The translations under genes and the position numbers were made by a program. Positions 1 to 17,197 of a stretch of 64,000 bases of DNA are shown piece after piece; position 1 is the first letter of the stretch, and the number at the start of each line of letters is the position of its first letter. Source of the stretch: Nodularia sp. LEGE 06071 (GTDB taxonomy: Bacteria; Cyanobacteriota; Cyanobacteriia; Cyanobacteriales; Nostocaceae); assembly GCF_015207755.1 (NCBI RefSeq), contig NZ_JADEWH010000008.1, forward strand, positions 124,001-188,000. Reading direction: 5' to 3'. The notes beneath the pieces were generated by a model that was given only the letters and a program-made list of their open reading frames with translations, was not told the origin of the DNA and made no database searches.

Positions 1-1379
1 CCTTACTTGAAAAAAAGTACAATGCAGAAACTCGTAACATCGAGATTGACGCAGATAGCATTGATGAAATTCAGCAACGTCCCATTGACTGGACGCGTCA
101 AGCACCCCTAGTACAGTATTTAGCAGCGCGGAAAAGTCACAAATTCCCACCTGTGCTAGTAGTAATTAATCAACCTTGGGTGGATAATCCCAAAGCGGCT
201 GAGTGGGATAGTCAGGGAATAGCCTTAAAATCTACTACTGATTTCACCGCTTTAGATAAAGATGGTAAAGTTGGTCTGCTGAATATTTCTGAAGATAATG
301 TGACAATTTATGCCTTGGATGGTCAGCATCGACTCATGAGTGTACAAGGGTTGATGGAGTTAATCAAAACTCGCAAATTGCAGCGCTATAAAAAAGATAA
401 AACTGCTGACGATAACTTTATTACCTTAGATGATTTGAGAGATCAGTACCAAGTAGACCTTGATTACTTGCAAAGCTTACCCAAAGAAAAAATTGGGATT
501 GAATTTATCTGTGCGGTTGCGGCTGGGGAAACTCGCACCGAAGCTAGGCGAAGGGTAAGGTCTATCTTTGTTCATGTTAACTTAATGGCTGCACCATTGA
601 CTAAAGGTCAGTTAGCACAGCTAAATGAGGATGATGGGTTTTCCATTGTGGCGAGAAAAATTGCAGTTACTCATCCGCTTTTGGAACAACGAAAAGAGCG
701 CAATCCTCGTGTTAATTGGAATAGTGGGACAGTGGCATCTAATTCTACTGTTTTAACCACCCTGCAAGCTCTTCATGATATGTGTGAGCGATATTTGGGG
801 CAAAAGTTCCCTCACTGGAAACCTTTGGAAAAAGGCTTAATTCCCATGCGTCCAGAGGATGAAGAACTTGAGGAAGGAATTGCGGAATTTAGTCAGCTAT
901 TTGATAATTTAGCCAGCCTTCCCAGTTATAAGCTGTTGGATGAAGAAGACACGCCAGCTTTGCGACGCTTTAGTTTTGAAAAGGATGGGGGGGAAGGAAA
1001 TCTGCTTTTTCGTCCTGTTGCACAAGTGGCTTTAGCGCAAGCTTTGGGAATCTTGGTTTTTCAAAAAGGTTTTACACTAGTAAATGTTTTTAAGAAGTTG
1101 CGAAAATTCGACCAGCAAGGCGGTTTGAGTGGTATGGAATATCCACAGTCTTTATGGTATGGCGTTTTGTATGACCCCAATAAAAAGCGAGTGCAGGTTT
1201 CTGGACGCGAATTAGCAGCCAAGTTACTAATTTATATCCTGGGTGGAGTTCAGGATCAAATGGAACGTGCTGAACTGCGTAAGGCTTTGGCTGATGCGAG
1301 AACGACAGAAAATAAAACCATCGGTTTTGATGGTAATTTTGTTGAACCCAAGCAAGTAGGACTTCCACCAGTGCTGTAA
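1..1379 (+). CDS. DGQHR-domain protein, DndB-like (5' end outside window)
   Basis: The reading frame is open from the first bases of the window, so the true start lies upstream and at least 459 codons are visible. An internal GTG at 153 is not a credible start because protein-like sequence continues before it. The family signature DGQHR is present (YALDGQHRLMSV, about 50 residues after that GTG). Proteins with this motif are often found with DNA phosphorothioation (Dnd) loci, where the related DndB acts as regulator of modification. The two genes on the opposite strand just downstream are also Dnd-associated, which supports that role. Its stop codon directly abuts the stop of the converging HNH gene with no base between. 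Exact subfamily (true DndB or another DGQHR protein) is not settled. Confidence 0.8.
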   Translation, partial: LLEKKYNAETRNIEIDADSIDEIQQRPIDWTRQAPLVQYLAARKSHKFPPVLVVINQPWVDNPKAAEWDSQGIALKSTTDFTALDKDGKVGLLNISEDNVTIYALDGQHRLMSVQGLMELIKTRKLQRYKKDKTADDNFITLDDLRDQYQVDLDYLQSLPKEKIGIEFICAVAAGETRTEARRRVRSIFVHVNLMAAPLTKGQLAQLNEDDGFSIVARKIAVTHPLLEQRKERNPRVNWNSGTVASNSTVLTTLQALHDMCERYLGQKFPHWKPLEKGLIPMRPEDEELEEGIAEFSQLFDNLASLPSYKLLDEEDTPALRRFSFEKDGGEGNLLFRPVAQVALAQALGILVFQKGFTLVNVFKKLRKFDQQGGLSGMEYPQSLWYGVLYDPNKKRVQVSGRELAAKLLIYILGGVQDQMERAELRKALADARTTENKTIGFDGNFVEPKQVGLPPVL

Positions 1380-2321
1380 TTAGGCTTGAAATATATTTTG
1401 GCGATGCCATTGAAGTGCTTCCAGTTCTGGAAAGTATTGTTCTGTATTTGGTAGAAGTATTTTTTCCCCATGAAAATCTTTCATAGGTTTAGCGTAGGGA
1501 GAAACTTCTGCCAAATCTTCGCTCACAATGATTTTGTATTGGTCATCTATGGTAAACCAACCCCGGTCAAATGCCCAATGATGATTTTTACACAATGCTA
1601 TTCCGTTATGGATTCTGTTGTCATAGAATTGGGAAAATGGTTTAATATGTGCGCCGTCAACAATATTTTGATTTAGTGCTTTAGTTACTTTCAGTCCACA
1701 AAAAGCACACCTAGAATCATAAACATATACAATAGCTTTCCTGAAAAAAGCATTTCTAATCGCTGCTCGCTTTAACTGCCATCTTGGCTCATAATCTGCA
1801 TTATCAGATTGAAATAATTTTTCTATTTCTACAGTTTGGTCATCAAAAGTCTCATTGATTTTCAAAATAACTTCTATATCACTTTCATTCTCAGAAAAGA
1901 AGGCTACCACGAGTGCATCAATTAAATATTTTCGGGAAGTTTCATCTTGGAGGAAGTTAAATAATTCAATATCTAAATAGGCATATTCAATAGCTTCTTT
2001 CAATTTTTTAGTCGTTTTTGGACGCAACCCATTAAAATTAGGTGTAAACGCTAAGTACCAAAATTCTTCATTTTTTAGATGGTAGAAAGGATAGTGTAAA
2101 CCACCTTTGTGATACGCAGATCCTATAACATTCCAGTAATTTGTAAATGTTTTAATTAATTCGTGTGAAATATAAATTTTATTATCGTTAATAATACCTC
2201 TGCTAATTAAATCAACTACAGATAAAAGTAATATAGGTTTGTATAAAGCATTACCAAGCTTCCGGCTAACGCTAACATTTAATTGGGAAAATTTTTGACG
2301 ATAATATTCTAAATTTTTCAT
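1380..2321 (-). CDS. HNH endonuclease, probably phosphorothioate-DNA-binding
   Basis: 313 residues. The C-terminal half is an HNH nuclease: a CxxC pair at C205/C208, then AHIKP with H225, then NGIALCKNHH with N239 and H247. The N-terminal 150 residues resemble the sulfur-binding domain of ScoMcrA-type enzymes, with LYKPILLL near residue 27 and YPFYHL at 77-82 followed by an FW pair. In that family the N-terminal domain recognises phosphorothioate-modified DNA and the HNH domain cuts near it. This is family knowledge; sulfur recognition here is inferred. The gene lies 26 bp downstream of a Dnd-associated gene on the same strand, so the two are probably co-transcribed. An alternative is a plain HNH enzyme of a restriction system. 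Confidence 0.78.
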   Translation of the reverse strand: MKNLEYYRQKFSQLNVSVSRKLGNALYKPILLLSVVDLISRGIINDNKIYISHELIKTFTNYWNVIGSAYHKGGLHYPFYHLKNEEFWYLAFTPNFNGLRPKTTKKLKEAIEYAYLDIELFNFLQDETSRKYLIDALVVAFFSENESDIEVILKINETFDDQTVEIEKLFQSDNADYEPRWQLKRAAIRNAFFRKAIVYVYDSRCAFCGLKVTKALNQNIVDGAHIKPFSQFYDNRIHNGIALCKNHHWAFDRGWFTIDDQYKIIVSEDLAEVSPYAKPMKDFHGEKILLPNTEQYFPELEALQWHRQNIFQA

Positions 2322-2347
2322 CTTAAAGTTTTATTTAAATAAATAAT

Positions 2348-2818
2348 TTAACTTAAAAATTTACTGAGATCAAATTCTTCGTCTGACTGTTCTTGAGCAT
2401 CTTTTTCGGAAATGAGAACCAATAAAAGACGTTCTGAATAATCAACGGCTCCTCGTAATTCATTTTGTAAAATTTCCAGCCCTCCGTTAGCATACTCTTC
2501 AAATATTTGGGTACGTTTGTCTTCATACTCTTCTTCTCTAGAAGACAGTATTTGTATATCTTTGGTTTCAGTTATTCCTAATAATTTGATAATGAGGTCA
2601 TGTCCTAGAGAAGCAAAATTTTCTTGTGGAATTGGCGAAGGTTCTCTTTTTGTAAATTCGCCTAGAAGAACACGCTTGTTATTTTTCACACCTAAAGCCG
2701 CCGCAAATACCATTACTTCCACATAAGTTTGAAAAGGCCCAGTTGTGTCTTTTGATGCTACTAACTGTTTCACCAACTCAGCCTTATCTTTAGCAACCCT
2801 GATTCTATTTGCAGCCAT
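2348..2818 (-). CDS. DNA phosphorothioation-associated protein 4
   Basis: 156 residues, small and soluble, with no membrane segment. The opening NRIRVAKDKAELVKQL, the segment GPFQTYVEVMVFAAALG (near 26-42) and FEEYANGGLEIL (near 106-117) match the Dnd-associated protein 4 family, known to travel with dnd genes. Its biochemical role is not established. It starts at ATG 2818 and is followed after 26 bp by the HNH gene, giving a likely two-gene operon. Its presence is the strongest single pointer to a phosphorothioation system at this end of the window. Confidence 0.78.
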   Translation of the reverse strand: MAANRIRVAKDKAELVKQLVASKDTTGPFQTYVEVMVFAAALGVKNNKRVLLGEFTKREPSPIPQENFASLGHDLIIKLLGITETKDIQILSSREEEYEDKRTQIFEEYANGGLEILQNELRGAVDYSERLLLVLISEKDAQEQSDEEFDLSKFLS

Positions 2819-2829
2819 GATAATGATAT

Positions 2830-2951
2830 CTATATTGTGACTATTTTAACCGAATATTAGATGCGATCGCCTATTTCCATTTCCTCTCCGTTTCCTCCGC
2901 GCCTCCGTGTTTTTCTCTCACCCACTTACTTAAACAAGGCAACCATACATT
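2830..2951. repeat. Direct repeat, left copy (pairs with 5428-5535)
   Basis: The two copies share a near-identical first 40 bases running into GCGATCGC, then a diverged middle, then the shared AACAAGGCAACCATACAT. In the right copy that last part is the coding end of the methyltransferase gene. Here only its last codons survive (reverse strand MYGCLV then stop). The amylosucrase gene lies between the copies. Confidence 0.75.
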
Positions 2952-2981
2952 ACTCATTTTTTAAGCATAAATCAGCACATA

Positions 2982-3014
2982 CCCAAGGAAGTAGGACTTC
3001 CACCAATCTTATAA
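2982..3014 (+). pseudogene. Fossil of a DGQHR gene 3' end
   Basis: These 33 bases match the last 33 coding bases of the upstream DGQHR gene (1347-1379). Read in frame they give PKEVGLPPIL then stop, against PKQVGLPPVL then stop in the complete gene. The differences keep or barely change the amino acids, which suggests a once-coding second copy of which only the end remains. It sits tail to tail with the methyltransferase remnant. Confidence 0.7.
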
Positions 3015-3257
3015 TGTACACAGTGCAAACACCAGGTGCTTTACGCAGAAATGAAAATTAATTCATCCGAAGCGATCGCATCTAGGATTTCTCCCTGCTT
3101 GTTGTAAATATTACTTCAAAATTACTGATATCTAGATCAGAGTTTTCAGACCATCTTGCAGGTTTGGACTTCTCTATCGGGTCACTTTTTGCCAAAGTGT
3201 ATTAGTATTCAGTTTAAACAACAAAATATAGCTGCTAGGTAATTTAAGATAAATAAG

Positions 3258-5213
3258 ATGTACGAACAAATTTCTCACTCACTGTTAAATTCAATACTAG
3301 ATGATTTAAAGCCGGAAATTCGTCGGCAAGATTTGCGGCATTTTTATACCCGCCTTGGGGCAAACTTTTACGCTATTCATTCGCTATTTTCTACGCTGTA
3401 CGGACATCGTGATGATTTTGAACTGCAAATGTTACGGCTAGTTGAAACAATGGCCAAAGGCTATATTGATCGCTCTCCAGAATTGGAGCGGTTAGATATT
3501 CAACGTGAGCAAGACCACAATTGGTTTTTGTCGCAAAAATGGGTAGGGATGGCACTTTATTCCAACGGTTTTGCCGAAAACTTGGCAGATTTAGAAAACA
3601 AAATCGGCTATTTTCAAGAGCTAGGCATCAATATGGTACATATTATGCCGATTTTGATGTGTCCTAATGGTCAAAGTGATGGGGGGTATGCCATTAGTGA
3701 TTTTAGACAAATTGACGATCGCGTTGGTAGTTTAGAAGATATTCGCAAAATTGCTCAGGAGTTCAGAAAGCGTGATATTTTACTAATTCTGGACATTGTG
3801 CTTAACCATACTTCTGACGAACATGAATGGGCGCAAAAGGCGAAGATGGGCGATCGCAGTTTTCAAGATTACTATTATATCTTTGAAAACCGAGAAACCC
3901 CTGATATGTTTGAGCAAAGTATGCCAGAAGTTTTCCCAGAAACAGATCCGGGTAATTTTACTTGGGATGCTGAGATGGAAAAATGGGTGATGACGGTTTT
4001 CCATAATTACCAGTGGGATTTAAATTACAGTAATCCCAAAGTTTTTATTGAAATGCTCGACATTATTCTGTTTTGGGCAAATCAAGGTGTGGATATTCTC
4101 CGGCTGGATGCAGTTGCTTTTCTATGGAAAAAGATCGGTAGTTCTTGCCAAAACGAGCGCTATGCACATTTAATTTTGCAGTTAATGAAAGATTGTTGTC
4201 AAGTGACTGCGCCTGGTGTGTTATTTATCGCTGAGGCGATTGTTGCGCCTGTGGAAGTAATTAAGTATTTCGGCGAGGATGCGATCGCTGCTAAAGAATG
4301 TGAGATTGCTTATAATGCTACTTTAATGGCATTAATGTGGGATGGAATTGCCACTAAAAACACTAAGCTAATTTACCAAGGCATTAAAAGTTTGCCTAAT
4401 AAATTAGAACGAGCTACTTGGCTAAACTATGTGCGTTGTCATGATGACATTGGTTTGGGTTTTGACGATAGTGATATTTACTCAGCCGGTTATGAACCCA
4501 GAGCGCATAGAAAATTTTTAGTTGATTACTTAACCGGTCAGTTTGATGACTCCCCATCGAGGGGAATGGTGTTCATGCCTAATGAAGCTACGGGAGATGC
4601 GCGGATTTGTGGTTCACTAGCTTCTTTGGTGGGATTAGAATCGGCGCTGGAAACTGCTGATGAGGATTTGATTGCCCTGGCAATTAATAGAATTTTATTA
4701 ATGCACGCAATTATTCTATCTTTTGGCGGCATCCCTCTAATTTATAATGGCGATGCGATCGCTGTACTTAATGATTACAGCTATATTGATGACCTCAGCA
4801 AAAGTAATGACAATCGCTGGGTACACCGCCCTAAAATTAATTGGGAAAAAGCCGACTTACGCAAAAAACAAGGCACACTGGAACACACAGTATTTAATGC
4901 TACTAAAAAATTGATTGCCATCCGTAAAGAAATTTCTGCATTTGCTGATTTCAATAACCGCGAATTGGTACACCTAGAGAATGAACACTTGCTATGTTTT
5001 GTTCGTTTCAATCATCAACGTCCATCAGAAAAAGTGCTAGTCATCGCTAACTTTGATGCAAATCCGCAAGACTTGTCTTTGGAGTCACTTAGAACTATGG
5101 GCTTCAATATTTATAGTAATTTTGTTGATTTATATAGTGGTACGAAACCAGAGCAATGTGATAGTCGTATTACTTTACAAGGATATCAATTTTATTGGCT
5201 CACAGAGACATAA
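3258..5213 (+). CDS. Amylosucrase (GH13), sucrose to alpha-glucan
   Basis: 651 residues, close to the 636 of the Neisseria enzyme. Amylosucrase moves the glucosyl unit of sucrose onto an alpha-1,4-glucan and releases fructose. All active-site parts of the family are visible: SDGGYA near 140 (the aspartate of the salt bridge at the pocket floor), NHTSDEHEWAQ near 183, the nucleophile in GVDILRLDAVAF (D284), the acid/base in FIAEAIV (E326), the transition-state aspartate in RCHDDIG (D396) and the arginine in NRWVHRP. The NHTS..EHEWAQ and QWDLNYSNP blocks separate it from sucrose phosphorylase. There is no signal peptide, so it is cytosolic. It starts at ATG 3258 with a weak ribosome site. It stands alone between direct repeats, unrelated to its Dnd neighbours. 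Confidence 0.92.
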   Translation: MYEQISHSLLNSILDDLKPEIRRQDLRHFYTRLGANFYAIHSLFSTLYGHRDDFELQMLRLVETMAKGYIDRSPELERLDIQREQDHNWFLSQKWVGMALYSNGFAENLADLENKIGYFQELGINMVHIMPILMCPNGQSDGGYAISDFRQIDDRVGSLEDIRKIAQEFRKRDILLILDIVLNHTSDEHEWAQKAKMGDRSFQDYYYIFENRETPDMFEQSMPEVFPETDPGNFTWDAEMEKWVMTVFHNYQWDLNYSNPKVFIEMLDIILFWANQGVDILRLDAVAFLWKKIGSSCQNERYAHLILQLMKDCCQVTAPGVLFIAEAIVAPVEVIKYFGEDAIAAKECEIAYNATLMALMWDGIATKNTKLIYQGIKSLPNKLERATWLNYVRCHDDIGLGFDDSDIYSAGYEPRAHRKFLVDYLTGQFDDSPSRGMVFMPNEATGDARICGSLASLVGLESALETADEDLIALAINRILLMHAIILSFGGIPLIYNGDAIAVLNDYSYIDDLSKSNDNRWVHRPKINWEKADLRKKQGTLEHTVFNATKKLIAIRKEISAFADFNNRELVHLENEHLLCFVRFNHQRPSEKVLVIANFDANPQDLSLESLRTMGFNIYSNFVDLYSGTKPEQCDSRITLQGYQFYWLTET

Positions 5214-5427
5214 AAAGCGGCAATATCTCCTTGGTTATCGCATCAGGATTGGTTTGCCTTAGTCAGGTCGCGTCGCTCCAATTCAAAATTCAAGACAATT
5301 AGTAGGAGATTGAACTCGCCACTAATTTTTCGCGTAGCGTCCCGTAGGGAAGACCGTCCTTACGGGTTAGCCAGTCACCTACAGTGGGAAACCTTCTTGC
5401 AGTGCTGGCTCACCCAATATTATTTAA

Positions 5428-5535
5428 CTATATTGTTACCATTTTAACCAAATATTAGATGCGATCGCCTTTCTCTTTCCTTGTCCTCTGTGGTTTTTTT
5501 CTCACCCTCTACTTGTAAACAAGGCAACCATACAT
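5428..5535. repeat. Direct repeat, right copy (pairs with 2830-2951)
   Basis: Contains the same HIP1-bearing start as the left copy and runs into the last codons of the methyltransferase gene at 5509. The bases before it (5214-5427) hold no gene. They contain a common Nostoc-type palindromic patch around 5331-5365 (cgtagcgtcccgtagggaag). Confidence 0.75.
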
Positions 5536-6261
5536 AAAAACTGGTTCAGTAATTTCCCTGTGCTGTATGGGTAATTCAGCTTGCCATGCCGAAACAGGCA
5601 AAATCCCATGTTCACTTAATTGCCAACGTCCCAGTAGCGGTTTAATCGTTGCCGGATTCCGCATATATAAATGTGCATCTAACGAATCCATTAGTTCTAT
5701 CAATTGAGGATATTGCAACCCAGCCTCACCATCAAAATCTAAAGCCAGAAAACTACCAGCAGGTACCCAGTCATAAAGTTTATCCAGCATCTCAGTTAAA
5801 ATATCGTCAGGAATAAAAGCGGAAACACCGACAAAAACTATCCCTAAACGCTGCAAACTTCCCAAAGTTTCAGTCACCACAGATTGATCAAGAGAATTCA
5901 GGTTTTTTGCATCACAGAATGTATAGTTAGCATTAGGGCTATTGGCTAGTAATTCTTGACCTAGTTGAATATTAGCTGCGTCAATGTCCGTGTACAACAC
6001 CTTGGCTTGCGGCACAGCTTCATGGACATTATCACAAGTTGGTAAACCTGAACCAAAGACAACAAACTGGTCAATTCCCTGCGATTCAATATAACGTGAT
6101 GCACGCCCAATATAATCTCTGAGTGTGCGAAAAACTTTTGGGAACTGGGGATAGACCTGTTCAAAGACTTTGGCGGCTTCCACATCAACAAGAAAATGAT
6201 GAGAACCACCCAGCCAATAATCTAGAATTCTGCCTGTGTTGGGAATTGATGGTGTTTCCAT
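5509..6261 (-). CDS. SAM-dependent methyltransferase, PF04672 (DUF574) type
   Basis: 250 residues. Family hallmarks are LDYWLGGSHHF (13-23), a glycine-rich SAM site FGSGLPTCDNVHE (70-82) where most members have GTGLPT..NVHE, and YTDID after it. The family is very common in actinobacteria and its substrates are mostly unknown. It starts at ATG 6261 and is a lone gene between the amylosucrase and the IS remnant. The 3' end is duplicated as a fossil at 2940-2951, so this locus has been rearranged. A specific methyl acceptor cannot be named. Confidence 0.82.
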   Translation of the reverse strand: METPSIPNTGRILDYWLGGSHHFLVDVEAAKVFEQVYPQFPKVFRTLRDYIGRASRYIESQGIDQFVVFGSGLPTCDNVHEAVPQAKVLYTDIDAANIQLGQELLANSPNANYTFCDAKNLNSLDQSVVTETLGSLQRLGIVFVGVSAFIPDDILTEMLDKLYDWVPAGSFLALDFDGEAGLQYPQLIELMDSLDAHLYMRNPATIKPLLGRWQLSEHGILPVSAWQAELPIQHREITEPVFMYGCLVYK

Positions 6262-6318
6262 TGTGATGATGACTTTGTAAGAAGGTTTACATCTCCACTC
6301 ATACTACAAATTGCACAT

Positions 6319-6500
6319 CCTCTTGACATACTCCCCCGAATTCTATTCGAGGGATTCTAGGCTCAAACAGCAATTGCAGGCATAGCCCGGCTTACATCAC
6401 CTAACCCGACGACAGTCGATGCCCCGACTGCACAAATTACTCTGGAGGCGTTCTCATCTCTCCCGTTCACTGACGAACAGGAAGGACAGCGCCATTCCCT
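6319..6500 (-). ncRNA. IS200/IS605 right end and likely omega-RNA scaffold
   Basis: Just after the tnpB stop, read on the minus strand, a hairpin (6333-6353; CCCTCGAAT paired with ATTCGGGGG) is followed by GAGTATGTCAA, the usual form of an IS200/IS605 right end. In this family the 3' part of tnpB plus the right end gives the guide RNA for TnpB, with the guide taken from the DNA just beyond the element. The right border is inferred from the motif and the 5' limit of the RNA is a guess. Confidence 0.5.
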
Positions 6501-7490
6501 AACAGACAAATCAAGACTTTCTAAAACGTGTCCACAGTGGGAACAAGTCTTACTACTGGGATACCATCGGTCGATGAACACAACCAATTTATTCTTCTTT
6601 TTAGCAACCCATTCGAGGATTTGTATAAACTCACCGAAAGCCAAGTCTGATATTTTTCTACCCCAAAGTCGCTGCATTCCTTTGAGGTTTAAAGTCTCAA
6701 AACAGAGAAGATCAAACTTATTAGTTAAATCATCTGCTAACTTCCAAAACCAGTCGCGTCTACGATGAGAAATATCCTCATGCTTACGTACTAAATTCTT
6801 TCTAGCTCGTTCACGATTAGATGAGCCTTTAAGCTTTTTAGAATGATGTTTACTGGCTTTTATGATAGCACTTAAAGACTGCTTAAAAAATTGGGGAGAC
6901 TCAATGGTTGTACCGTCAGAGCAAGTGAGGAATGTTTTCAAACCAAAATCAAAACCAGCGATTTTAACCGTCTTAATTTCAACTTCTGGCTTACTGCCTT
7001 CATCAACAACCACAACCATAAACAAATCACCCAACGGTGTACGCTTTATAGTTAATGTTTTGACTGTTCCCTCAATTTCTCTAGACTTCCAGAATTGATA
7101 AACACGACTACCAACTTTTACCCTGTTACCACCCAAAAACTTATAACCAGCTTGCTTAAGGGTAAATGATTTATATTTTTTGACCTTCTTGAATCCCGGT
7201 GGTCTAACTCCTTTTTTATTATGTTTAAAAAATAATTGGTAAGCTTTCTCAATGCGTTGACAGATATCTTGAACTGCTTGAGATCCTACTGTTTGCCAAA
7301 AAGAATTGCGTTTTCTTAATTTGGCAATATGAGATTGAAGTTTTGCACAGCTTAAATGCTTGCCCCACATCCGGTAGTAACGTTTATGCAAGGCAATGCA
7401 ATGATTATAGATTACCCCACTCGCGTTAATCATACGCTTAAGGAATCTGTTTCTTTTATGCTGGTACAGTTTAAACTTCAATGTTTTCAT
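6363..7490 (-). CDS. tnpB: TnpB, IS605-type RNA-guided endonuclease
   Basis: 375 residues, full length for the family. The RuvC-like triad is complete: D181 in AGFDFGLKTF, E265 in CFETLNLKG, D345 in NGRDENAS. The zinc ribbon is present as CSHC (316-319) and CPSC (335-338). The N-terminal helical part with YNHCIALHKRYYR is typical. TnpB proteins are programmable nucleases that use an RNA from the element's right end, and the hairpin just downstream fits this. The start at ATG 7490 gives MKTLKFKLYQHK, a usual opening. Because its tnpA partner is truncated, an unbroken nuclease frame here may reflect recent decay or retention of TnpB. Confidence 0.92.
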   Translation of the reverse strand: MKTLKFKLYQHKRNRFLKRMINASGVIYNHCIALHKRYYRMWGKHLSCAKLQSHIAKLRKRNSFWQTVGSQAVQDICQRIEKAYQLFFKHNKKGVRPPGFKKVKKYKSFTLKQAGYKFLGGNRVKVGSRVYQFWKSREIEGTVKTLTIKRTPLGDLFMVVVVDEGSKPEVEIKTVKIAGFDFGLKTFLTCSDGTTIESPQFFKQSLSAIIKASKHHSKKLKGSSNRERARKNLVRKHEDISHRRRDWFWKLADDLTNKFDLLCFETLNLKGMQRLWGRKISDLAFGEFIQILEWVAKKKNKLVVFIDRWYPSSKTCSHCGHVLESLDLSVREWRCPSCSSVNGRDENASRVICAVGASTVVGLGDVSRAMPAIAV

Positions 7491-7583
7491 GCGGTCATGC
7501 TACCATTAATTATGTAGATAATTAACACTCGTCTACACTTCGGCAAGTGTTACAGTGAGCTTGTCAAACTGCTCTGTTACCAC

Positions 7584-7976
7584 ATGAAAACTGTATATAA
7601 TCACTACAATCATGCAATTAGATTGGCTACTGTTCATCTGGTCTGGATACCATGTAGGCGTAAGAGGGTTTTCACTAATAATGAAAAATTAAAGCTGCGA
7701 TGTATTGAAATACTTCAGTCTGTTGCTAATGATAAAAAATGGGTTATCAAAGCCCTAGAAATTGCCCCTGATCATATTCATTTATTGGTTGAGTATGACC
7801 CTCATCATTCAATCTCTCAAGTAGTGAAAGCGTTTAAAGGTCGGTCGACTCGCAATCATAACCCCACCTCAAAAACAACCACCCCTCTCAACTCTACCTC
7901 TTCCCTCCGCGCCTCTGCGCCTCTGCGTGAAACACTCACCCCTGTGTCCTCACAGTCAAAACCTGCGGTGGAGTAG
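7584..7976 (+). pseudogene. tnpA: Truncated IS200-type transposase TnpA
   Basis: The first 90 or so codons are a Y1 (HUH) transposase: LATVHLVWIPCRRKRVF, then the HUH motif in DHIHLLVEYDP, then HHSISQVVKAFKGRSTR. Family similarity stops near 7855, before the helix with the catalytic tyrosine. The rest of the frame is low-complexity chance translation that runs into the 3' end of the SLH gene on the other strand. It should be inactive. Confidence 0.85.
7909..7930. repeat. Inverted repeat copy 1 (pairs with 9839-9860)
   Basis: A 22-bp stretch of GCGCCTCT/GCGTGA type. Its reverse complement recurs at 9839-9860 with two differences. The pair flanks the SLH-domain gene almost exactly. The motif belongs to a short repeat type common in Nostoc-like genomes, so flanking may be chance. 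Confidence 0.55.
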
Positions 7977-9831
7977 CATCAGGAGGATACAAAAAATCCA
8001 CCTGAACTTGTCGCCTCTCTCCCCCTTGCATTTCCAACCTCAGCAAAGGTTCACCAGTTTGTCCCCGTCGTTGTACCAAATGCACATAGCGCGTTCTTTC
8101 CACGCCATTATCATCTGGATAACGCACCCTCACCGTTCCCCGAAAAAATACCTGTTCCACCCGTGGCTGTAAAAACAGTAACCTATCACTACCCCCTTCA
8201 TCCTTCACAGGCGTTTGAATAGATACAGTTACAGTCCGGGTTTGATTGCTAGAATTACGTAAAGGCAAACTGAGATTGTATTCTATGCCATAATTACTGT
8301 GAGCAAAATAAGCCGTATCTACATAGCGTTTCAACATCGGCGCACTCTGAATTTGCCCAGTACTGAGAGTAACTAAATGTATAGTCGCCAAAGGATAAGA
8401 AAACGCCTGTCCTCGCTGGGGTATCGTCAAATCAGGCACAGTAGAATTATCTGTAATTTGGGCTAGCCATTGCGTCCCTTGGGATACACCAGCCACCCGA
8501 CTAAATACTGTGGGTTCTCTGGGAGGATCGAGAGGTGTAGGAATAGCATCGCGCTTTCCTGCTAAACTGCCAGTATCCAGAAGTCTTTGCCACTGGGCTA
8601 AACTGGGCGGAGTATTACTACTCTGAGATAATTTTGCCATATAAAGCGGGCGATCGCTCTCCAATCTAATCATCGTACTGCGACCACTAGAAGATGGCGA
8701 TCGCACAGGAATTTCTAAATTGGCTAATATTTGGCTTTTCCCTGGTTCTATTACCAATCTTTCCGGGAAATTAGCTTGTCTGACACCCCGCAAGACATCA
8801 TTCATGGTGCGACTACCAGGGCCAGCGTAAACTGTACCTTGGGGATTATCTACCATATCCGGCAGAGTAATAAACGGTGATTCTCTGGTAAGATAACTAG
8901 CAGCTTGTAATACTTGCAATGTTACCGGTTGATTTCCAGGATTATGGACAATAATACCTTGGTAAACCGTGCGGCTTTGGGCTGATGTTTCTGCCCTGAC
9001 GATATGATGGGCGAAGACATCAAATCTGCCTTGAAAAGAATAGTTTAAATGTGCTTCTGGTGCTTGTTTGCCTTCTGGGGGAAAAGTTGATAGCAAAATG
9101 CCGTCAGTTGTCACCAATTCCGGGCTATTACTGTTAAAAGTGGGAATAAGATTGAGTTGTCCTGGTAAAAGGCGCACCTCTTGAGGATCTACTTCTATTC
9201 CCGCAATATATTCTGGGGGAACACTGTAGATATTTAACGCCCGACACATTAAAGCTGCAACTTCCCCTCTGGTAGCACTTTGCAGTGGTTTTAGCTGTTT
9301 AATGTTAGGATAATTAACAATAATACTATTAATTGCCCCTTGAGCGATCGCATTTTGGGCATAGTTAGGAATTTGCGCCGCATCATCAAAGTACTGTTGT
9401 AATGTTTGCGCTGGATTAGATACAGAGTTATAATTTTTCGCACCAGCTAGCACACCGATAATTTGCACCCTGGGAATTGCTTGATTTGGTTGAAAAATTC
9501 CCCCTGGATAACCAGCAAAAAACCCTTTTTGATAAGCCCTCGCAATGGCTTGATTTGCCCAATAGTTAGTAGGTACATCTTTAAATGTAATGGCTGGGCG
9601 CTGTATTGGTGCGTCGGGGAAAGCATTTAACATTAATACAGCTGCTTCCGCGCGGGTGACGGTTGCATTGGGGCGAAAACTTCCGTCGGGGTATCCTGTA
9701 ATTAGTTTGCGTTCTCCTAATTGTTGAAGACAATCTTTTCCCCAGTGGTTTTGGGTGTCAAAGAAAGCGAGGGTGCGGGTGTGGGATAAGGTTAGGAGAA
9801 AGGTGAGTGTTGCTAGGGTATATTTATTCAT
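7936..9831 (-). CDS. SLH-domain surface protein with DUF3370 region
   Basis: About 631 residues from ATG 9831. A TTG 15 bases further out is less likely because the signal peptide (MNKYTLATLTFLLTLSH, cleavage near residue 22) begins at this ATG. Three SLH modules follow: NHWGKDCLQQLGERKLITGYPDG, then TNYWANQAIARAYQKGFF, then a weaker one ending at TRGEVAALMCRALN. SLH modules anchor proteins to the cell wall. From about residue 210 the protein matches cyanobacterial DUF3370, a probable beta-rich secreted domain of unknown function. It is exported, monocistronic, and overlaps only the nonsense tail of the truncated transposase. Confidence 0.85.
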   Translation of the reverse strand: MNKYTLATLTFLLTLSHTRTLAFFDTQNHWGKDCLQQLGERKLITGYPDGSFRPNATVTRAEAAVLMLNAFPDAPIQRPAITFKDVPTNYWANQAIARAYQKGFFAGYPGGIFQPNQAIPRVQIIGVLAGAKNYNSVSNPAQTLQQYFDDAAQIPNYAQNAIAQGAINSIIVNYPNIKQLKPLQSATRGEVAALMCRALNIYSVPPEYIAGIEVDPQEVRLLPGQLNLIPTFNSNSPELVTTDGILLSTFPPEGKQAPEAHLNYSFQGRFDVFAHHIVRAETSAQSRTVYQGIIVHNPGNQPVTLQVLQAASYLTRESPFITLPDMVDNPQGTVYAGPGSRTMNDVLRGVRQANFPERLVIEPGKSQILANLEIPVRSPSSSGRSTMIRLESDRPLYMAKLSQSSNTPPSLAQWQRLLDTGSLAGKRDAIPTPLDPPREPTVFSRVAGVSQGTQWLAQITDNSTVPDLTIPQRGQAFSYPLATIHLVTLSTGQIQSAPMLKRYVDTAYFAHSNYGIEYNLSLPLRNSSNQTRTVTVSIQTPVKDEGGSDRLLFLQPRVEQVFFRGTVRVRYPDDNGVERTRYVHLVQRRGQTGEPLLRLEMQGGERRQVQVDFLYPPDATPPQVLTVRTQG

Positions 9832-9914
9832 GATTGTCTCACGCAAAGGCGCAAAGGCGCAAAGAAGAAAGCCAGCAAAGGAAGTATAGCCTGTCGGTAA
9901 TTACGAACTACGAA

Positions 9915-11987
9915 TTACGAATTACGAATTATTTCTATGATTTCGGTATATTCAAATTCGTTGGGACTTTGCTTGACTAAGGGGTATCTTTGTCCTGCTA
10001 ATTGGATATGATTTTGTTCACAATCTGGTTTTGAGGAATAATAGGTAAGTACGTATTCTCTACCTATTCTTTCTGTCATTTCTTTTTCTACTTCACCTCG
10101 CCATTGAGTTTTACTGGCTAAGACAATTAATTGGTTAGCTAATTTGGGAATTGTTCCTGCTATATGTCGCCGCGACATTTCATCTAAGCTGCCAAAGGGG
10201 GAATCCATAACAATAGGAAATGTGCTACTATCGGGAAGCATCATCATTTTGCGCTTTTGACTCCACTCTCTGACTTTATCGATGATGCTGGCAATGAAGG
10301 ATAAGCTGAGAATTTGATTTTCTCCTGTAGAAGCTGCAACTGGTGCTTCTATTCCCGCCGTATGTTCTACTAAGGTTAATTCATATTTTTCGCTAATTTT
10401 GGGAATATATGGTTTGACTGAAAGCTGGTTAAATATCTCTTGGACTCGTTTTTCTAGTTGCAGACGAAATTGTTTTTCTTGGCGATTTTTAACTTCGGTT
10501 AACCGTTCAATTGCATCTTGAGTAGCGTTAATGCGTCGCTGTGCTAAGATTTGCCTTTCTTCATTCAGTTTCTGCTTAGATATTTGTTTACCTAAAGCAT
10601 CAATTTCTGTTTTTAATTGAATAATTTTCTGCTGGTTTGCACCTTGTTCTCGATTTAATTCATCAATTTTACTGGAAATCTCATCTAAGCGTTTTTGTAA
10701 GCTGCTAATTTCTTCATTCGCATCTTTTCGCAGTTTGTCTTGAAGGTTATCTAATTCACCCTCAACTTGGAATATGGTTGCTCTTAATTGCTTAATTCTG
10801 GCTTGTTCTCTATCAACTTCTTCCCAAAAAGCCGCAGCTTGTTTATCAATTTCATCTACTTGTACACCCATGCGAATAGCGGTTTCTTCCACGGCTGAAG
10901 AACCAGCTTTATCTAGCCAAGTTCGGACATTTTCATGATTATCAGTACCTGCGCTTAAGTCTGCACCACAAATACAGCGTTGAGTTTTTAATAATTCATT
11001 GACAAATTCTCGCGAAATTCCAGAGGTTAACTCACCTCGCTGTTTTAAGTCATCAATAATTTTCCGAAATTGTGATGTTGTCTCTCCCAGTAATACTGTA
11101 TAACCCCGTGAGGAAATTATTTTTTTCAGGGCTTCTTTATTTTTTTTGAATGCTTCCTGGTTTTCGGCTTTCTGCAATTCTAAACTTTGCCACCTGTCTT
11201 CTATTTCTTTAGCCGCAACCAGTTCCAACAAGTGGTTACTTGTCTCTTTTTTAAAGGTTTGTTGATATTCTAACTCTTGTTTAATTTCTGTTTGGCGGTT
11301 GGTGAGGCGTTCACTTTCTTGTTCTATCTTCTCTTGGTCTTTTAGCAGTTTCTTAGTTTCTGCATCACCAATGGCTTTTAACTCATTTTCTAAAGTTTTT
11401 TTCGCTTCTCCTAAATGTCGAATAGAACGGTTAATTACTTCCACACCCAAGAAAATCTTAGTCGCTTCCGCAATTTCAGCTTTTTTATCAGAACGCACTA
11501 TTTCTTCTATGCGTTCACCGTCAAAGAAAAAATATTGATGTAAACTTGCAGGTAAAATTTGATTAATAATATCATCTGGTTGTTGTTGTGGTATCTTCCA
11601 ATCACCATCTTCTTCACCTACCCACATCCGTAATTCTGTTTTACCAGCTTCAAAGTCACTGTCATTTTTATAAACCCGACAAGAACGTTTAACTTTGTAG
11701 CGTTTACCTTCGTGTTCCCAGCCTACTTCTACCCAACATTCTACCGGTTGTCCTTTTTGGGCTTCAGCTATTGAACGTTTATTAACTAGCTGTTCGGCGG
11801 AGGCGAAAGCTGCACTAAATTTCTCATATAATACCCAAGTGAAGGCATTGAGTAAACTGGTTTTTCCAGAACCGTTATTACCATGAATAATTGTGGTGTT
11901 CAGGGTATCTCCTACCGCGAGGAGTATTTCTGGAGTTGTACCATAAAAGGAGCGAAAGTTGCACAGCTTGATTGAAGTCAGCTTCAT
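9915..11987 (-). CDS. dndD: DNA sulfur modification protein DndD (SMC-like ATPase)
   Basis: 690 residues, near the 660 of characterised DndD. Walker A is GNNGSGKTS (36-44). Two long coiled coils (about 180-290 and 385-500) flank a CxC-G turn (CICGAD near 337) like a Rad50 zinc hook. The signature region ASTGENQILSLSF and Walker B FPIVMDSPFGSLDE (ends near D595) close the ATPase head. DndD works with DndC and DndE to put sulfur into the DNA backbone; its ATPase activity is thought to remodel DNA. The start at 11987 overlaps the stop of the small upstream frame by 4 bases, so translation is coupled. dndC and dndE are not nearby. A Rad50-like repair ATPase is an alternative, less likely given the other Dnd genes. 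Confidence 0.83.
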   Translation of the reverse strand: MKLTSIKLCNFRSFYGTTPEILLAVGDTLNTTIIHGNNGSGKTSLLNAFTWVLYEKFSAAFASAEQLVNKRSIAEAQKGQPVECWVEVGWEHEGKRYKVKRSCRVYKNDSDFEAGKTELRMWVGEEDGDWKIPQQQPDDIINQILPASLHQYFFFDGERIEEIVRSDKKAEIAEATKIFLGVEVINRSIRHLGEAKKTLENELKAIGDAETKKLLKDQEKIEQESERLTNRQTEIKQELEYQQTFKKETSNHLLELVAAKEIEDRWQSLELQKAENQEAFKKNKEALKKIISSRGYTVLLGETTSQFRKIIDDLKQRGELTSGISREFVNELLKTQRCICGADLSAGTDNHENVRTWLDKAGSSAVEETAIRMGVQVDEIDKQAAAFWEEVDREQARIKQLRATIFQVEGELDNLQDKLRKDANEEISSLQKRLDEISSKIDELNREQGANQQKIIQLKTEIDALGKQISKQKLNEERQILAQRRINATQDAIERLTEVKNRQEKQFRLQLEKRVQEIFNQLSVKPYIPKISEKYELTLVEHTAGIEAPVAASTGENQILSLSFIASIIDKVREWSQKRKMMMLPDSSTFPIVMDSPFGSLDEMSRRHIAGTIPKLANQLIVLASKTQWRGEVEKEMTERIGREYVLTYYSSKPDCEQNHIQLAGQRYPLVKQSPNEFEYTEIIEIIRNS

Positions 11988-12157
11988 TGCACTTCTTCCT
12001 TAACAATATCTAATATCTCTTCGTTAATATGGCTATTGATTTTTTTATCTAGTCTGCCTTTTTCCAATTTCCAAACTCGCTCAATAATCTGTCGCACTTC
12101 TGGCGACGCACTAGAAATTGGTTCCTGCACATCTTCAATATTTGTGTCTGGGAGCAT
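11984..12157 (-). CDS. Small hypothetical protein coupled to dndD
   Basis: 57 residues from ATG 12157; an upstream TTG at 12172 is possible. It is charged and mostly helical by eye (EVRQIIERVWKLEKGRLDKK), with no signal or membrane segment. Its stop overlaps the dndD start (ATGA), which is typical of an operon and suggests a related job. The frame stays open for about 13 codons before the ATG (KYKENLLKSRQ) and closes at a TAG at 12197. It could therefore be the tail of a longer gene broken by a stop. I do not recognise the family. Confidence 0.55.
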   Translation of the reverse strand: MLPDTNIEDVQEPISSASPEVRQIIERVWKLEKGRLDKKINSHINEEILDIVKEEVQ

Positions 12158-12545
12158 TTGGCGGCTTTTCAATAGGTTTTCTTTATATTTTAGCTGCTAG
12201 AAGTCCTGCATTTGCATCCGTGAAGCTACTATTACTCTTGCTTTTAGGTATGGCGAGAATTTTTGTAACTTATTGGGCAAAAAAGAATGCTTGATTTTGA
12301 GTATTGGGCGTGGTAAATTAAAGATGGATTTACATTATAATTGGGTGTAAGCTAAATTTTAAAATCAAGTTATATCCAATTATAATTAACTTTAATATTA
12401 TTTTCACACACTATCTGCAATTTACTACAAAGTCAAAAAAATTTTTTCAGGTTTTTTTTGTATCTGGGTTTGAAGAGGAACGAACCGCAGAGGCACAGAG
12501 AACACAGAGTTATGAGAGTTGGAGGTTTTTTTTACAAGTCCGGAA
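12158..12545. other. Gene-free stretch upstream of the dndD operon
   Basis: No convincing gene. It should hold the promoter for the small ORF and dndD and the end of the helicase transcript. The main structure is the inverted repeat at 12335-12385. Around 12482-12515 is a purine-rich patch of a kind often seen between Nostoc genes (cgcagaggcacagagaac). Confidence 0.6.
12335..12385. repeat. AT-rich inverted repeat in the dndD leader
   Basis: Arms TTATAATTGGGTGTAA (12335-12350) and TTATATCCAATTATAA (12370-12385) pair over 14 of 16 positions around a 19-base loop. It may be an operator, a terminator for the upstream helicase, or a MITE remnant. No poly-T tract follows on the minus strand, so a simple terminator is less likely. 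Confidence 0.5.
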
Positions 12546-14021
12546 TTAAATATCTAATAATCCGTAACGTTTTTGTAAGTTGAGTAGTTTCATTCTGGCT
12601 TCGCCGGCGTTATCGGCTAAGTCGGCAAATTCTACAAAGCGGCGTAGTTCTTTTTTTAATAGGTTGCGTTCTATTTCTATGGTTTCTCTATCTAAGTCTG
12701 GTGGTAAGACTATCATATCGAATATGGTGGCGCGTTCTTTATTAATGTGAGGACGTAATACTCTCCCCCGACGCTGAATGAATTGGCGCGGGTTTCCTGA
12801 ACTTGATAAAATTACGGCTGTTTGAATGGCTGGTATATCAACTCCTTCGTCTAAGCAGCGTATTGCTACTAAACCCTGTAATTCTCCACTTTCAAATTGA
12901 CAGCGTAAGGTTTCCCGTTCTTTTAAGGAAGTGTGGGCGGTGTATGTGCTGACTCTATATCCTAAGTCTACACCGAGAATTTTGGCTACGGCTTTGAGTT
13001 GACGCAAGGATGAACGTTGTCCGGTTTCTTGGGAACCATCGCTACAATAAAATAGTGTGTGGGTGCTTTCTCGCCGAGTCTCCATTAATTCTCGCAAAGC
13101 GGTTAATTTATTTTCTGCTGTGCCAATTAGTCTGGCGCGTTGCATTAATAATGGTTTTAAGTCTTCGTTGTCTTCAAAGTTTCTGGCTTGGCCATTTTCT
13201 CGTTCTCTATATAATAGCGATCGCCCGATTTTTTTGGTTAACTTTAAATAAGCCATACTTTCGGTTTCGGTCAGTTCTACAAGTATGGGATAATACAAAT
13301 AATGTACTAAAGCCCCTTGAGCGATCGCATCCTTCAAGTTAAACTCTGGTTGTAGCACTGAACCAAAATAATCAAATAATGATTGCGTCCCATAATCATC
13401 AAAATATCTTTCTGGTGTCGCCGATAAAGCCAGCCGCAACCCTACCCGACGAGGTAAATTTTCTTCTAACTTTGGTGCGCCTAAATTATGCGCTTCATCA
13501 CCGATAATTAAAGTTTTCGGGGGAAAATACTTAAGTTGAGACTGAAAACCATCACCAATTAATGTGGAATTGGTAGTAATTACCGTGACAAAGTTTTGCG
13601 AACCGGAACGCAGATTATACAGTTGCGTAGATAGTTGACTTTGCCAAGTGCGTAAATTCTCGAAAGCTAAGATAGGCTGTAAGTTAAACTTCTCACATTC
13701 TCGCGCCCATTGGGTGACCAGATGACGATAAGGACACACCACTAATAACACTTGTAAGTTAATCTGCTGGTATAATTCACAAGCGATCGCTAAAGCTGTA
13801 ATAGTCTTACCACTACCAGTAGCCATTTTTAGCGTCCCTCTGCCATTGTTAGCAAACCAGCTAGTAATAGCCTGACGTTGATACTGCCGTAATTGCAGAG
13901 ATACAGGCAAAATTGGGCATCCTGGTAATGGCTGACGAGTTTGATAACTTCCCTGACGTTCCCTCAAAAATGGAACTTTCAGCCTGAAAGTAGATTGTTC
14001 CTGTACTAAATAATTAATCAT
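12546..14021 (-). CDS. DEAH helicase, Dnd-system restriction protein type
   Basis: 491 residues. Superfamily 2 helicase motifs are clear: the Q-like LRQYQRQAI (44-52), Walker A MATGSGKT (66-73), DEAH at 175-178, LALSATPERY (198-207), and the late motifs LVAIRCLDEGVDIPA and QFIQRRGRVLRP. Size and layout fit the helicase family that co-occurs with dnd genes and is named Dnd restriction enzyme in family models. In such systems it would help cut DNA lacking phosphorothioate marks. No nuclease domain is recognisable, so the cutting partner is unclear. It starts at ATG 14021, between lexA and the dndD operon, all on the minus strand. A general XPB/RAD25-like repair helicase is the alternative. Confidence 0.75.
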   Translation of the reverse strand: MINYLVQEQSTFRLKVPFLRERQGSYQTRQPLPGCPILPVSLQLRQYQRQAITSWFANNGRGTLKMATGSGKTITALAIACELYQQINLQVLLVVCPYRHLVTQWARECEKFNLQPILAFENLRTWQSQLSTQLYNLRSGSQNFVTVITTNSTLIGDGFQSQLKYFPPKTLIIGDEAHNLGAPKLEENLPRRVGLRLALSATPERYFDDYGTQSLFDYFGSVLQPEFNLKDAIAQGALVHYLYYPILVELTETESMAYLKLTKKIGRSLLYRERENGQARNFEDNEDLKPLLMQRARLIGTAENKLTALRELMETRRESTHTLFYCSDGSQETGQRSSLRQLKAVAKILGVDLGYRVSTYTAHTSLKERETLRCQFESGELQGLVAIRCLDEGVDIPAIQTAVILSSSGNPRQFIQRRGRVLRPHINKERATIFDMIVLPPDLDRETIEIERNLLKKELRRFVEFADLADNAGEARMKLLNLQKRYGLLDI

Positions 14022-14050: not shown

Positions 14051-14103
14051 GGGAAATCACCATCTTTTCCCCCACTCCCCACTCCTCACTCCCTACTACC
14101 CAA

Positions 14104-14706
14104 TTAATAACCGCGCCAAACCCCAACCAGAGAACCCTGCACCTGCACTTGTGTAGCGAGTACCTCAATGGGTTTATATTTAGAATTGGCAGGCTTGAGA
14201 GTGACGCGATCGCCTTGGCGATAAAAACGTTTTAAAGTAGTACCGTATCCATCAACTCTAGCAGCAACGATGGTGCCATTTTTTAATTGATCTGGTTCTA
14301 GCACTGGATGCAGAAATACCAAATCGCCATCAGCAATTAAATCTTCAATCATGCTATCCCCAGCTACCCGTAAACCGTAGCTTTCGGGAGGTAAAGAAAT
14401 ATTAGAAAAGTCTAAATGATCTATAGCATCAGTAAAAGGTTCAATTAAACCACCAGCCGCAATTGTGCCTAAAATGGGGATACCTTGTTTAACAGGATGC
14501 AAAATCCGAATCGTTCGCGCCTTCCCTTCATTCCAGTCTATATAACCTTTGGTGCGTAAATGCTCTAAACGACTTTGAATCGGTGCAGGTGATTTCAGCT
14601 TCATTGCTTCCATCATTTGCCGAATGGAAGGAGAATACTGGTGAATTTTGATATAATCTACCAACCAATCGTATAATTCTTGTTGAGCTTCTGTGAGACG
14701 TTCCAT
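14104..14706 (-). CDS. lexA: LexA repressor
   Basis: 200 residues from ATG 14706, opening MERLTEAQQELYDWL as LexA usually does; a TTG 24 bases further out is less likely. The N-terminal winged helix-turn-helix (SPSIRQMMEAMKLKSPAPIQ) binds DNA. The C-terminal part is the self-cleavage domain: scissile Ala84-Gly85 in GTIAAGGL, nucleophile S118 in AGDSM and base K159 in TTLKRF. All three are intact, so RecA-triggered cleavage should be possible. In several cyanobacteria LexA controls redox and carbon genes rather than a classical SOS set. A perfect cyanobacterial LexA box lies upstream, so it probably represses itself. Confidence 0.95.
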   Translation of the reverse strand: MERLTEAQQELYDWLVDYIKIHQYSPSIRQMMEAMKLKSPAPIQSRLEHLRTKGYIDWNEGKARTIRILHPVKQGIPILGTIAAGGLIEPFTDAIDHLDFSNISLPPESYGLRVAGDSMIEDLIADGDLVFLHPVLEPDQLKNGTIVAARVDGYGTTLKRFYRQGDRVTLKPANSKYKPIEVLATQVQVQGSLVGVWRGY

Positions 14707-14738
14707 AAATTTATTGGGAATTAAATACAAATGTCTTT

Positions 14739-17145: not shown

Positions 17146-17197
17146 AAGTTTTGAGATAGACTCACGAGTATACTACATATACAACCAGTTAAGGGAG

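What the first reader, a model, noticed from the sequence alone, without database searches (positions are those of the whole stretch)
1..14021. Scattered phosphorothioation (Dnd) defence locus interleaved with unrelated genes
Seen: a DGQHR gene, an HNH nuclease, Dnd-associated protein 4, a DndD-type ATPase and a Dnd-type helicase within 14 kb, separated by amylosucrase, a methyltransferase, an IS remnant and an SLH gene. Known: dnd genes normally form one tight cluster and modification needs dndC and a sulfur donor. Inference: either the cluster was split by insertions, or this is a partial set with dndC/E upstream of the window.
Basis: partly seen in the sequence, partly recalled or inferred. 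Interest (0 to 1): 0.75.

Follow-up and report, generated by a model that had tools for sequence, protein, structure and literature searches.

The report
Disarmed, scattered phosphorothioation defence in cyanobacteria
The genes are one complete DNA-sulfur-marking locus of a Nostoc-like cyanobacterium, split by an insertion, and its defence half is a nuclease-free version that most relatives in its order keep even where its genes lie at separate places on the chromosome.

Summary
The five Dnd-type genes are real. dndC, dndD, dndE and a Dnd methyltransferase lie directly upstream of the window. All form one roughly 20-kb locus in an order shared with relatives, split here by 7.1 kb of other genes (2819-9914; about 1 kb in near relatives). 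The downstream pair is a Pbe-type module: a CxC ABC-ATPase, a PbeA-type helicase and an unlisted 62-aa PbeB-like ORF between them. The helicase lacks PbeA's N-terminal PLD nuclease, as do all 51 short forms extracted, which form one clade. In the order, 60 of 75 genomes keep helicase, ATPase, AP4, dndC, dndD and dndE; 7 keep none, 8 are mixed. Helicase and ATPase distances track rpoB (r about 0.91). In 11 of 26 long-contig genomes holding all six, they sit at 4-6 sites. Published work calls phosphorothioate restriction absent from Cyanobacteria (PMC8569181, passages). Best reading: a PT-dependent, non-cleaving Pbe-like system, disarmed once, then inherited vertically. Function is untested.

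The parts
1..1379 (+). dndB / DGQHR protein, C-terminal 458 of 532 residues (the gene starts 220 bp before the window)
   Evidence: TIGR03187, 194 bits; 47 of 80 genomes examined have a match
1380..2321 (-). SBD-HNH endonuclease: N-terminal sulfur-binding domain, C-terminal HNH; a patchy component
   Evidence: SBDHga 8h0l E 1e-19 over residues 5-141, HNH/TagI chains at the C-terminus; matches at E<=1e-10 in 37 of 80 genomes, some weak or with stops; E<1e-50 in 22 of the 60 six-gene genomes
2348..2818 (-). Dnd-associated protein 4 (AP4, TIGR04062); fourth member of the Pbe-type module by position; possible PbeD counterpart (unproven)
   Evidence: 211.7 bits, cut-off 74.25; 66 of 80 genomes; no profile similarity to DndE; structure model too poor to use; no Pfam or PADLOC match
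2819..9914 (.). 7.1-kb interruption between AP4 and the ATPase gene: alpha-amylase-family gene, Methyltransf_19, TnpB/TnpA of IS200/IS605, SLH-DUF3370 gene
   Evidence: gap of 0.8-1.3 kb at the same place in G125, G101 and G068; an SLH-DUF3370 gene also sits here in G074, with a partial hit in G129
9915..11987 (-). PbeC-type CxC ABC-ATPase (Rad50-like ends, Cys-x-Cys in the coiled-coil region)
   Evidence: 66 of 244 genomes in the phylum sample
11984..12172 (-). PbeB-like ORF, 62 aa, stop codon overlapping the pbeC start (ATGA)
   Evidence: profile hit in 47 of 48 genomes whose pbeC region was read, 38 of which built the profile; no match in PADLOC or NCBIfam, none above cut-off in Pfam
12546..14021 (-). 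PbeA-type SF2 helicase without the N-terminal PLD nuclease (TIGR04095)
   Evidence: (PbeA model positions 241-681 of 682 only)
14104..14730 (-). lexA, upstream and co-directional neighbour of the helicase in this family; an anchor, not shown to be part of the system (named from its sequence by eye)
   Evidence: a match to it within 106-605 bp of the helicase, same strand, in 17 of 18 same-family genomes examined (the 18th, G030, is at a contig end; spacings); none in 9 genomes outside the family with at least 2 kb read on that side (a tenth, G129, had only 0.4 kb)

Best explanation
This is one ancestral DndBCDE plus Pbe-type locus, split in this lineage by a 7.1-kb interruption. DndC, DndD and DndE, with sulfur probably supplied by a housekeeping cysteine desulfurase, put phosphorothioate on the host's DNA (inferred from family membership). 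The second module is a PbeA-type translocase, a PbeB-like small protein, a CxC ABC-ATPase and AP4. It most likely scans DNA and, where PT marks are missing, blocks its replication or establishment without cutting it, as reported for archaeal PbeABCD (inferred). The nuclease domain of its helicase was lost once, at or before the base of the order (the simplest reading of one gene tree). The system does not behave like a mobile defence island: the core genes are single-copy in nearly all genomes, their distances follow rpoB, and they are retained where unlinked (shown in the genomes examined). Confidence in anatomy and evolution is about 0.85; in the non-cleaving block as the function about 0.4.
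For: Complete modification set next door. Conserved order helicase - ATPase - AP4 - (HNH) - dndB - dndC - dndD - dndE (- methyltransferase) in relatives; the same order without dndB in G193, which belongs to another order. CxC in 48 of 48 ATPases against 0 of 25 DndD. PbeB-like ORF in 47 of 48 genomes (38 of them built the profile), staying with the helicase in G002, G066 and G205, where the ATPase gene is elsewhere. Of 55 helicase ORFs extracted, 51 are short; the N-terminus of the long G193 and G170 forms matches only loci holding long forms, and those two give PLD matches. Short forms are one clade with long G193 as sister. Six-gene pattern in the order: all in 60, none in 7, mixed in 8 of 75. 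Distances track rpoB: helicase 0.91, ATPase 0.91, DndD 0.87, AP4 0.78, DndC 0.72, with 0 of 2000 permutations as high. Archaeal Pbe blocks virus without cleavage, its pbeA is only partly required, and loss of dndCDEA there gave no apparent growth defect (PMC6459918, passages).
Against: No function was tested. The helicase survives without dndC, dndD, dndE, ATPase or AP4 in G051, which a strict partnership would not predict. G070 and G159 have no dndC match while keeping helicase and ATPase (drafts; the G159 helicase is shortened). G080 and G209 have dndC, dndD and dndE with no Pbe genes. AP4 shows no similarity to DndE, so the PbeD role is only positional. The authors of PMC10853773 argue that cleavage is part of Pbe action (passages), so loss of the nuclease might mean loss of defence. 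The short-form clade has support of 0.81 only, from one gene. Homology of the 62-aa ORF to archaeal PbeB was not tested. DndFGH was not searched for.
Confidence: 0.6

Rival explanations
1. Domesticated chromosome-maintenance system. After losing its nuclease the Pbe-type complex became a housekeeping machine that uses PT marks to guide repair, replication restart or oxidative-damage handling, and no longer defends against phage.
For: Near-core inheritance tracking rpoB, with genes at 4-6 sites in 11 of 26 genomes; no nuclease in the helicase, and a good HNH match in only 22 of 60 six-gene genomes; helicase beside lexA in 17 of 18 same-family genomes and kept there alone in G051; Rad50-like ATPase ends. 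Jian 2021 proposed an antioxidant origin, not excluding epigenetic regulation, for cyanobacterial dnd (PMC8569181, passages).
Against: The Pbe trio is missing at three places on the rpoB tree, so it is dispensable; no phenotype known; lexA adjacency was seen in one family only.
Confidence: 0.35
2. Ordinary restriction: the SBD-HNH protein is the working nuclease of the system, and the helicase and ATPase assist it.
For: Open SBD-HNH gene inside the locus; the authors of PMC10853773 describe PT-binding HNH proteins beside Dnd modification genes (passages).
Against: Only 22 of 60 six-gene genomes have an HNH match at E<1e-50, at least two of them (G030, G167) with a stop inside. A PT-binding nuclease would threaten PT-marked host DNA (inference). 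Other nucleases elsewhere in the genomes were not surveyed.
Confidence: 0.15
3. Decaying remnant of a defence island, held together by chance.
For: Interruption in the locus; HNH with stops in several relatives; shortened helicases in G054 and G159, an in-frame TGA in the ATPase gene of G109 and G119, shortened ATPases in G145 and G151.
Against: The core ORFs of the window are open, and 60 of 75 genomes keep all six genes although they are unlinked in many.
Confidence: 0.05

Closest known systems
DndCDEA-PbeABCD of haloarchaea (Xiong et al. 2019, PMC6459918; passages read)
   Same: DndC/DndD/DndE modification set; SF2 helicase with ResIII and Helicase_C; small protein between helicase and ATPase; ABC-ATPase of the PbeC kind
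   Different: Helicase has no PLD/HKD nuclease domain; AP4 is not recognisably the DndE-type PbeD; near-core in one order, distances track rpoB, genes often unlinked
Cyanobacteriales dnd systems (Jian et al. 2021, PMC8569181; abstract, passages and section 7 read)
   Same: Vertical inheritance in the order, 'various configurations' of dnd genes
   Different: Its restriction proteins in the passages seen are DndF, DndG and DndH, and it states that PT restriction is absent in Cyanobacteria; here a co-inherited Pbe-type module is found. That the genomes here are of that same order is inferred from named relatives
CxC ABC-ATPase/DndE-anchored systems (PMC10853773; passages read)
   Same: CxC ATPase, SF2 helicase and small-protein architecture; PT-binding HNH beside dnd
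   Different: There the helicase is mostly fused to an HKD DNase. Its main text has 0 uses of 'cyanobacter' or 'Nostoc'; supplements not read
SBD-HNH PT-dependent endonucleases
   Same: Sulfur-binding domain plus HNH (8h0l, TagI-like)
   Different: Scores below the NF045808 cut-off; encoded inside a PT-making locus, which PMC10853773 also reports for PT-binding HNH proteins

Membership tests
Dnd phosphorothioation (modification) | DndC sulfurtransferase | tested here: met
   TIGR03183 697.8 bits, cut-off 290.4; one match in the genome
Dnd phosphorothioation (modification) | DndD and DndE | tested here: met
   TIGR03185 716.6 bits (cut-off 245.85); TIGR03184 136.5 bits (cut-off 71.85)
Dnd phosphorothioation (modification) | Cysteine desulfurase DndA or IscS substitute | tested here: inconclusive
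   12 PF00266 matches in the genome, none on the contig of this locus and none assigned to DndA or IscS
Dnd phosphorothioation (modification) | Phosphorothioate in genomic DNA | not testable with these tools
   needs LC-MS/MS
PbeABCD | PbeA = PLD/HKD nuclease fused to SF2 helicase | tested here: not met
   Only PbeA model positions 241-681 of 682 match; no PLD domain in the protein; no convincing match to the G193/G170 N-terminus in the window or the 20 kb upstream
PbeABCD | PbeB small protein between pbeA and pbeC | tested here: met
   62-aa ORF at 11984-12172, conserved in 47 of 48 genomes; met by place and size only, homology to archaeal PbeB not tested
PbeABCD | PbeC = CxC ABC-ATPase | tested here: met
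   PADLOC PbeC 1164 bits; CxC motif
PbeABCD | PbeD = DndE cognate | tested here: inconclusive
   AP4 in the right neighbourhood; hhalign probability to DndE 1.1%; model pLDDT 50.3
PbeABCD | PT-dependent antiviral activity without DNA cleavage | not testable with these tools
   needs phage and plasmid assays
DndFGH | dndF, dndG, dndH present | not tested
   no genome search was run for them
SBD-HNH endonuclease | sulfur-binding domain plus HNH domain | tested here: met
   cleavage of PT DNA not testable here

The most novel reading that the evidence does not exclude
A whole order of cyanobacteria runs on a domesticated phosphorothioate system. A Pbe-type defence complex lost its nuclease once, became a vertically inherited core function of the chromosome (repair, replication or marking), and its genes then dispersed over the chromosome yet are kept or lost together. 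It would be a PT 'reader' that is not a restriction system.
Probability: 0.4. Interest if true: 0.8.

Novelty: new variant of a known kind. Interest (0 to 1): 0.6.

Why it matters
Phosphorothioate systems are described as sporadic (PMC8569181, abstract) and, outside Cyanobacteria, strongly shaped by horizontal transfer (its section 7); the cyanobacterial ones are said to lack a restriction partner. Here a partner exists, is present in most genomes sampled from the order, carries no nuclease in its helicase, and is kept without linkage. That makes an open question directly testable: what PT does in a lineage that has kept it by vertical descent, and whether a PT 'reader' can work without cutting. 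It also gives a natural before-and-after pair for losing the nuclease (G193/G170 against the order) and natural losers of the whole set as controls.

Tried and rejected
Idea that the genes are truly scattered in this genome: rejected, all lie within about 20 kb in conserved order.

Idea that the ATPase is a second DndD: rejected by score below the DndD cut-off and by the CxC motif.

Idea that AP4 is DndE-like PbeD: not supported by profile comparison (probability 1.1%); the AlphaFold model was too poor (mean pLDDT 50.3), so no fold search was run on it.

A motif search for HKD in the helicase N-termini was uninformative: it also missed the long forms. The claim that the nuclease is absent rests on length, on tblastn with the G193 and G170 N-termini (which hit only the loci of G193, G170, G116's and G070's long second copies, G094 and G081) and on the Pfam scan.

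Idea that the missing nuclease domain is encoded next door: nothing convincing in the window or the 20 kb upstream. The genome has other PLD-domain ORFs (8 matches), not examined further.

Idea that the HNH is an obligatory part: rejected as general, 22 of 60 six-gene genomes have it at E<1e-50.

Literature: searches listed no paper whose title or start of abstract describes a Pbe module in cyanobacteria. Four of the listed papers were opened for passages (PMC8569181, PMC10853773, PMC6459918, PMC11662687) and a fifth, PMC11705971, the only hit, proved to be about archaeal proviruses. The others were seen as listings only; the library lacks most subscription papers, and supplements could not be read.

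The 244 genomes are a sample of the phylum. AP4, HNH, dndD, dndE and dndB were sought only in 80 chosen genomes. Sequences for trees and distances were fetched for part of them. The 26-genome linkage table was chosen as genomes with all six genes on one contig over 2 Mb, so it cannot itself show retention; retention is. It groups genes up to 30 kb apart (G231's helicase lies just under that). Fisher values ignore relatedness. The rpoB tree places G193 and G170 inside the order, against their taxonomy label, and places family f2 apart from the other dispersed families, whereas the helicase tree places f2 near them: single-gene trees are rough here.
Full report
What is there. The window is G000:C8:124001-188000 of a 5.58-Mb draft genome. 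A PAPS-reductase-family hit ends 530 bp before the window start. Reading that side gives, in contig coordinates: a Dnd-related methyltransferase (117435-118892, minus; TIGR04096 712.3 bits), dndE (119019-119405, minus; 136.5 bits), a four-helix-bundle gene on the other strand (119497-119868), dndD (119897-121885, minus; 716.6 bits), dndC (121996-123597, minus; 697.8 bits) and the start of dndB (plus), which runs into the window. Then follow, inside the window, the SBD-HNH gene, AP4, a 7.1-kb stretch of other genes, the ATPase, a 62-aa ORF, the helicase and lexA.

One locus, not scattered pieces. In same-family genomes where the set is together the order is argF - lexA - helicase - ATPase - AP4 - (HNH) - dndB - dndC - dndD - dndE (- methyltransferase), with variable gaps. 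The AP4-ATPase gap is about 0.8 to 1.3 kb in G125, G101 and G068, against 7.1 kb here, so the amylase, methyltransferase, IS and SLH genes interrupt the locus. An SLH-DUF3370 gene at the same place in G074 and a partial hit in G129 suggest that part of the interruption is older or recurrent.

A Pbe-type module. The ATPase falls below the DndD cut-off (167 against 245.85 bits) and scores 1164 bits to a PADLOC PbeC model. It carries a CxC in the coiled-coil region; so do all 48 such ATPases examined, against 0 of 25 DndD. That signature defines the CxC ABC-ATPases that include PbeC (PMC10853773, passages). Between helicase and ATPase lies a 62-aa ORF whose stop overlaps the ATPase start. A profile built from 38 such ORFs hits in 47 of 48 genomes whose ATPase region was read; G145 is the exception. 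In G002, G066 and G205, where helicase and ATPase genes are apart, it sits behind the helicase instead. By position and size it matches PbeB (66 aa in the archaeal system, PMC6459918, passages). It has no PADLOC or NCBIfam match and only a sub-threshold Pfam one.

No nuclease in the helicase. The window helicase matches only positions 241-681 of a 682-residue PbeA model and has no PLD match. Of 55 helicase ORFs extracted (one per genome), 51 are short (377-537 aa, all from the order; G054 and G159 are shortened at the other end) and four are long: G193, G170, G081 and G094. In the wider search the 65 first copies of the order have open frames of 383-550 aa. The N-termini of the G193 and G170 proteins give PLDc_2 matches (5.9e-05, below Pfam's score cut-off, and 7.1e-08, above it), and by tblastn they match only loci of long forms. 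In a tree of 57 helicases (the 55 plus two long second copies from G070 and G116) all short forms form one clade (support 0.81), with the long G193 protein as sister and G170 next. The simplest reading is one loss of the nuclease domain. G116 and G070 carry, besides the short form, a separate long form of another clade, so armed and disarmed versions can coexist.

Distribution. In a sample of 244 genomes of the phylum the helicase is found in 69, dndC in 66 and the ATPase in 66 (one of these, G060, a fragment with a stop). Within the order the counts are helicase 65, dndC 65, ATPase 63, AP4 64, dndD 65 and dndE 65 of 75. Sixty of 75 have all six; seven have none; eight are mixed: G051 (helicase only), G097 (no ATPase match, 280-contig draft), G008 (no dndE match), G070 and G159 (no dndC match; G159 also no dndD; drafts), G058 (dndC fragment only), and G080 and G209 (dndC, dndD and dndE without Pbe genes, near an HNH match). 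Outside the order, 4 of 169 genomes have the helicase. dndB (47 of 80) and HNH (37 of 80 at any strength; E<1e-50 in 22 of the 60 six-gene genomes) are not part of the conserved core.

Unlinked yet kept. In 26 genomes with all six genes on one contig over 2 Mb, the genes form one group (gaps up to 30 kb) in 8, two in 6, three in 1, four in 3, five in 3 and six in 5. Genomes with 4-6 groups belong to families f2, f5, f7 and f8. Splits with different break points also occur inside the window's own family (dndE alone in G091; helicase alone in G042, G243, G064 and G103; helicase plus ATPase in G191; three groups in G174), so unlinking has happened more than once. Whether f2 and the f5/f7/f8 families dispersed separately is open, because the rpoB and helicase trees disagree on f2. 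The Pbe trio is missing altogether at three places on the rpoB tree: family f9; a subclade of f5 (G014, G076, G080, G093, G133); and G147/G183. For G147/G183 the sister G143 has helicase, ATPase and AP4 at three separate sites, so joint loss there needed several events. General genome reduction could also cause this.

Vertical inheritance. Protein distances correlate with rpoB distances within the order, in the genomes whose sequences were fetched: helicase 0.908 (44 genomes), ATPase 0.912 (43), DndD 0.871 (23), AP4 0.782 (29), DndC 0.718 (44), with 0 of 2000 permutations reaching the observed value in each case. The lower DndC value leaves room for some transfer.

How it probably works. From established knowledge of the families: DndC, DndD and DndE make phosphorothioate DNA, using a cysteine desulfurase; 12 PF00266 matches elsewhere in this genome include possible donors. 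Archaeal PbeABCD inhibits virus without degrading its DNA, needs pbeB, pbeC and pbeD absolutely and pbeA partly, PT-modified virus escapes, and loss of dndCDEA caused no apparent growth defect (PMC6459918, passages). A nuclease-less PbeA fits that non-cleaving mode. Others hold that cleavage is part of Pbe action (PMC10853773, passages), in which case the disarmed form may have a different job. I favour a PT-dependent non-cleaving block of unmarked DNA, with a chromosome-maintenance role a close rival. Nothing here measures either.

Relation to published work. Jian et al. 2021 report dnd as enriched and vertically inherited in Cyanobacteriales with varied configurations, and state that PT restriction systems are absent there; the restriction proteins named in the passages seen are DndF, DndG and DndH (PMC8569181, abstract, passages and section 7). 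They also place dnd clusters only in Cyanobacteriales; here G193, of another order by its label, has the set too. The data here agree with vertical inheritance and revise the absence: a Pbe-type partner is co-inherited. Searches listed no paper that describes this; most listed papers were not opened and the library is incomplete.

Verdict. The locus is a known kind of system in a new variant: a Pbe-type module with a nuclease-less helicase, near-core in a cyanobacterial order and often dispersed.

Noticed in passing
window 16510-17145 and 17045-18280 (+): DarT-DarG type pair (PADLOC 239.7 and 465.9 bits) just beyond lexA and argF.
   Followed up: partly
L004:2497-2868 (+), contig C8:119497-119868: A 23S-rRNA-intervening-sequence-type four-helix-bundle gene (PF05635) lies on the opposite strand between dndD and dndE.
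   Followed up: no
window 14021-14104 and relatives: Helicase downstream of lexA on the same strand in 17 of 18 same-family genomes examined (106-605 bp apart), and kept there in G051 after loss of the rest.
   Followed up: partly
L082 (G116) and L165 (G070): Second, nuclease-bearing PbeA-type helicases of another clade coexist with the short form in these two genomes; in G116 it sits with dndC, an HNH gene and a distant PbeC-like gene.
   Followed up: partly
G109 and G119 ATPase genes (L153, L138): The search reports one in-frame TGA in the ATPase gene of both sampled genomes of this genus.
   Followed up: no
window 6363-7976: IS200/IS605-type TnpB (375 aa) beside a short TnpA ORF matching only the first 89 of 126 model positions.
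   Followed up: no
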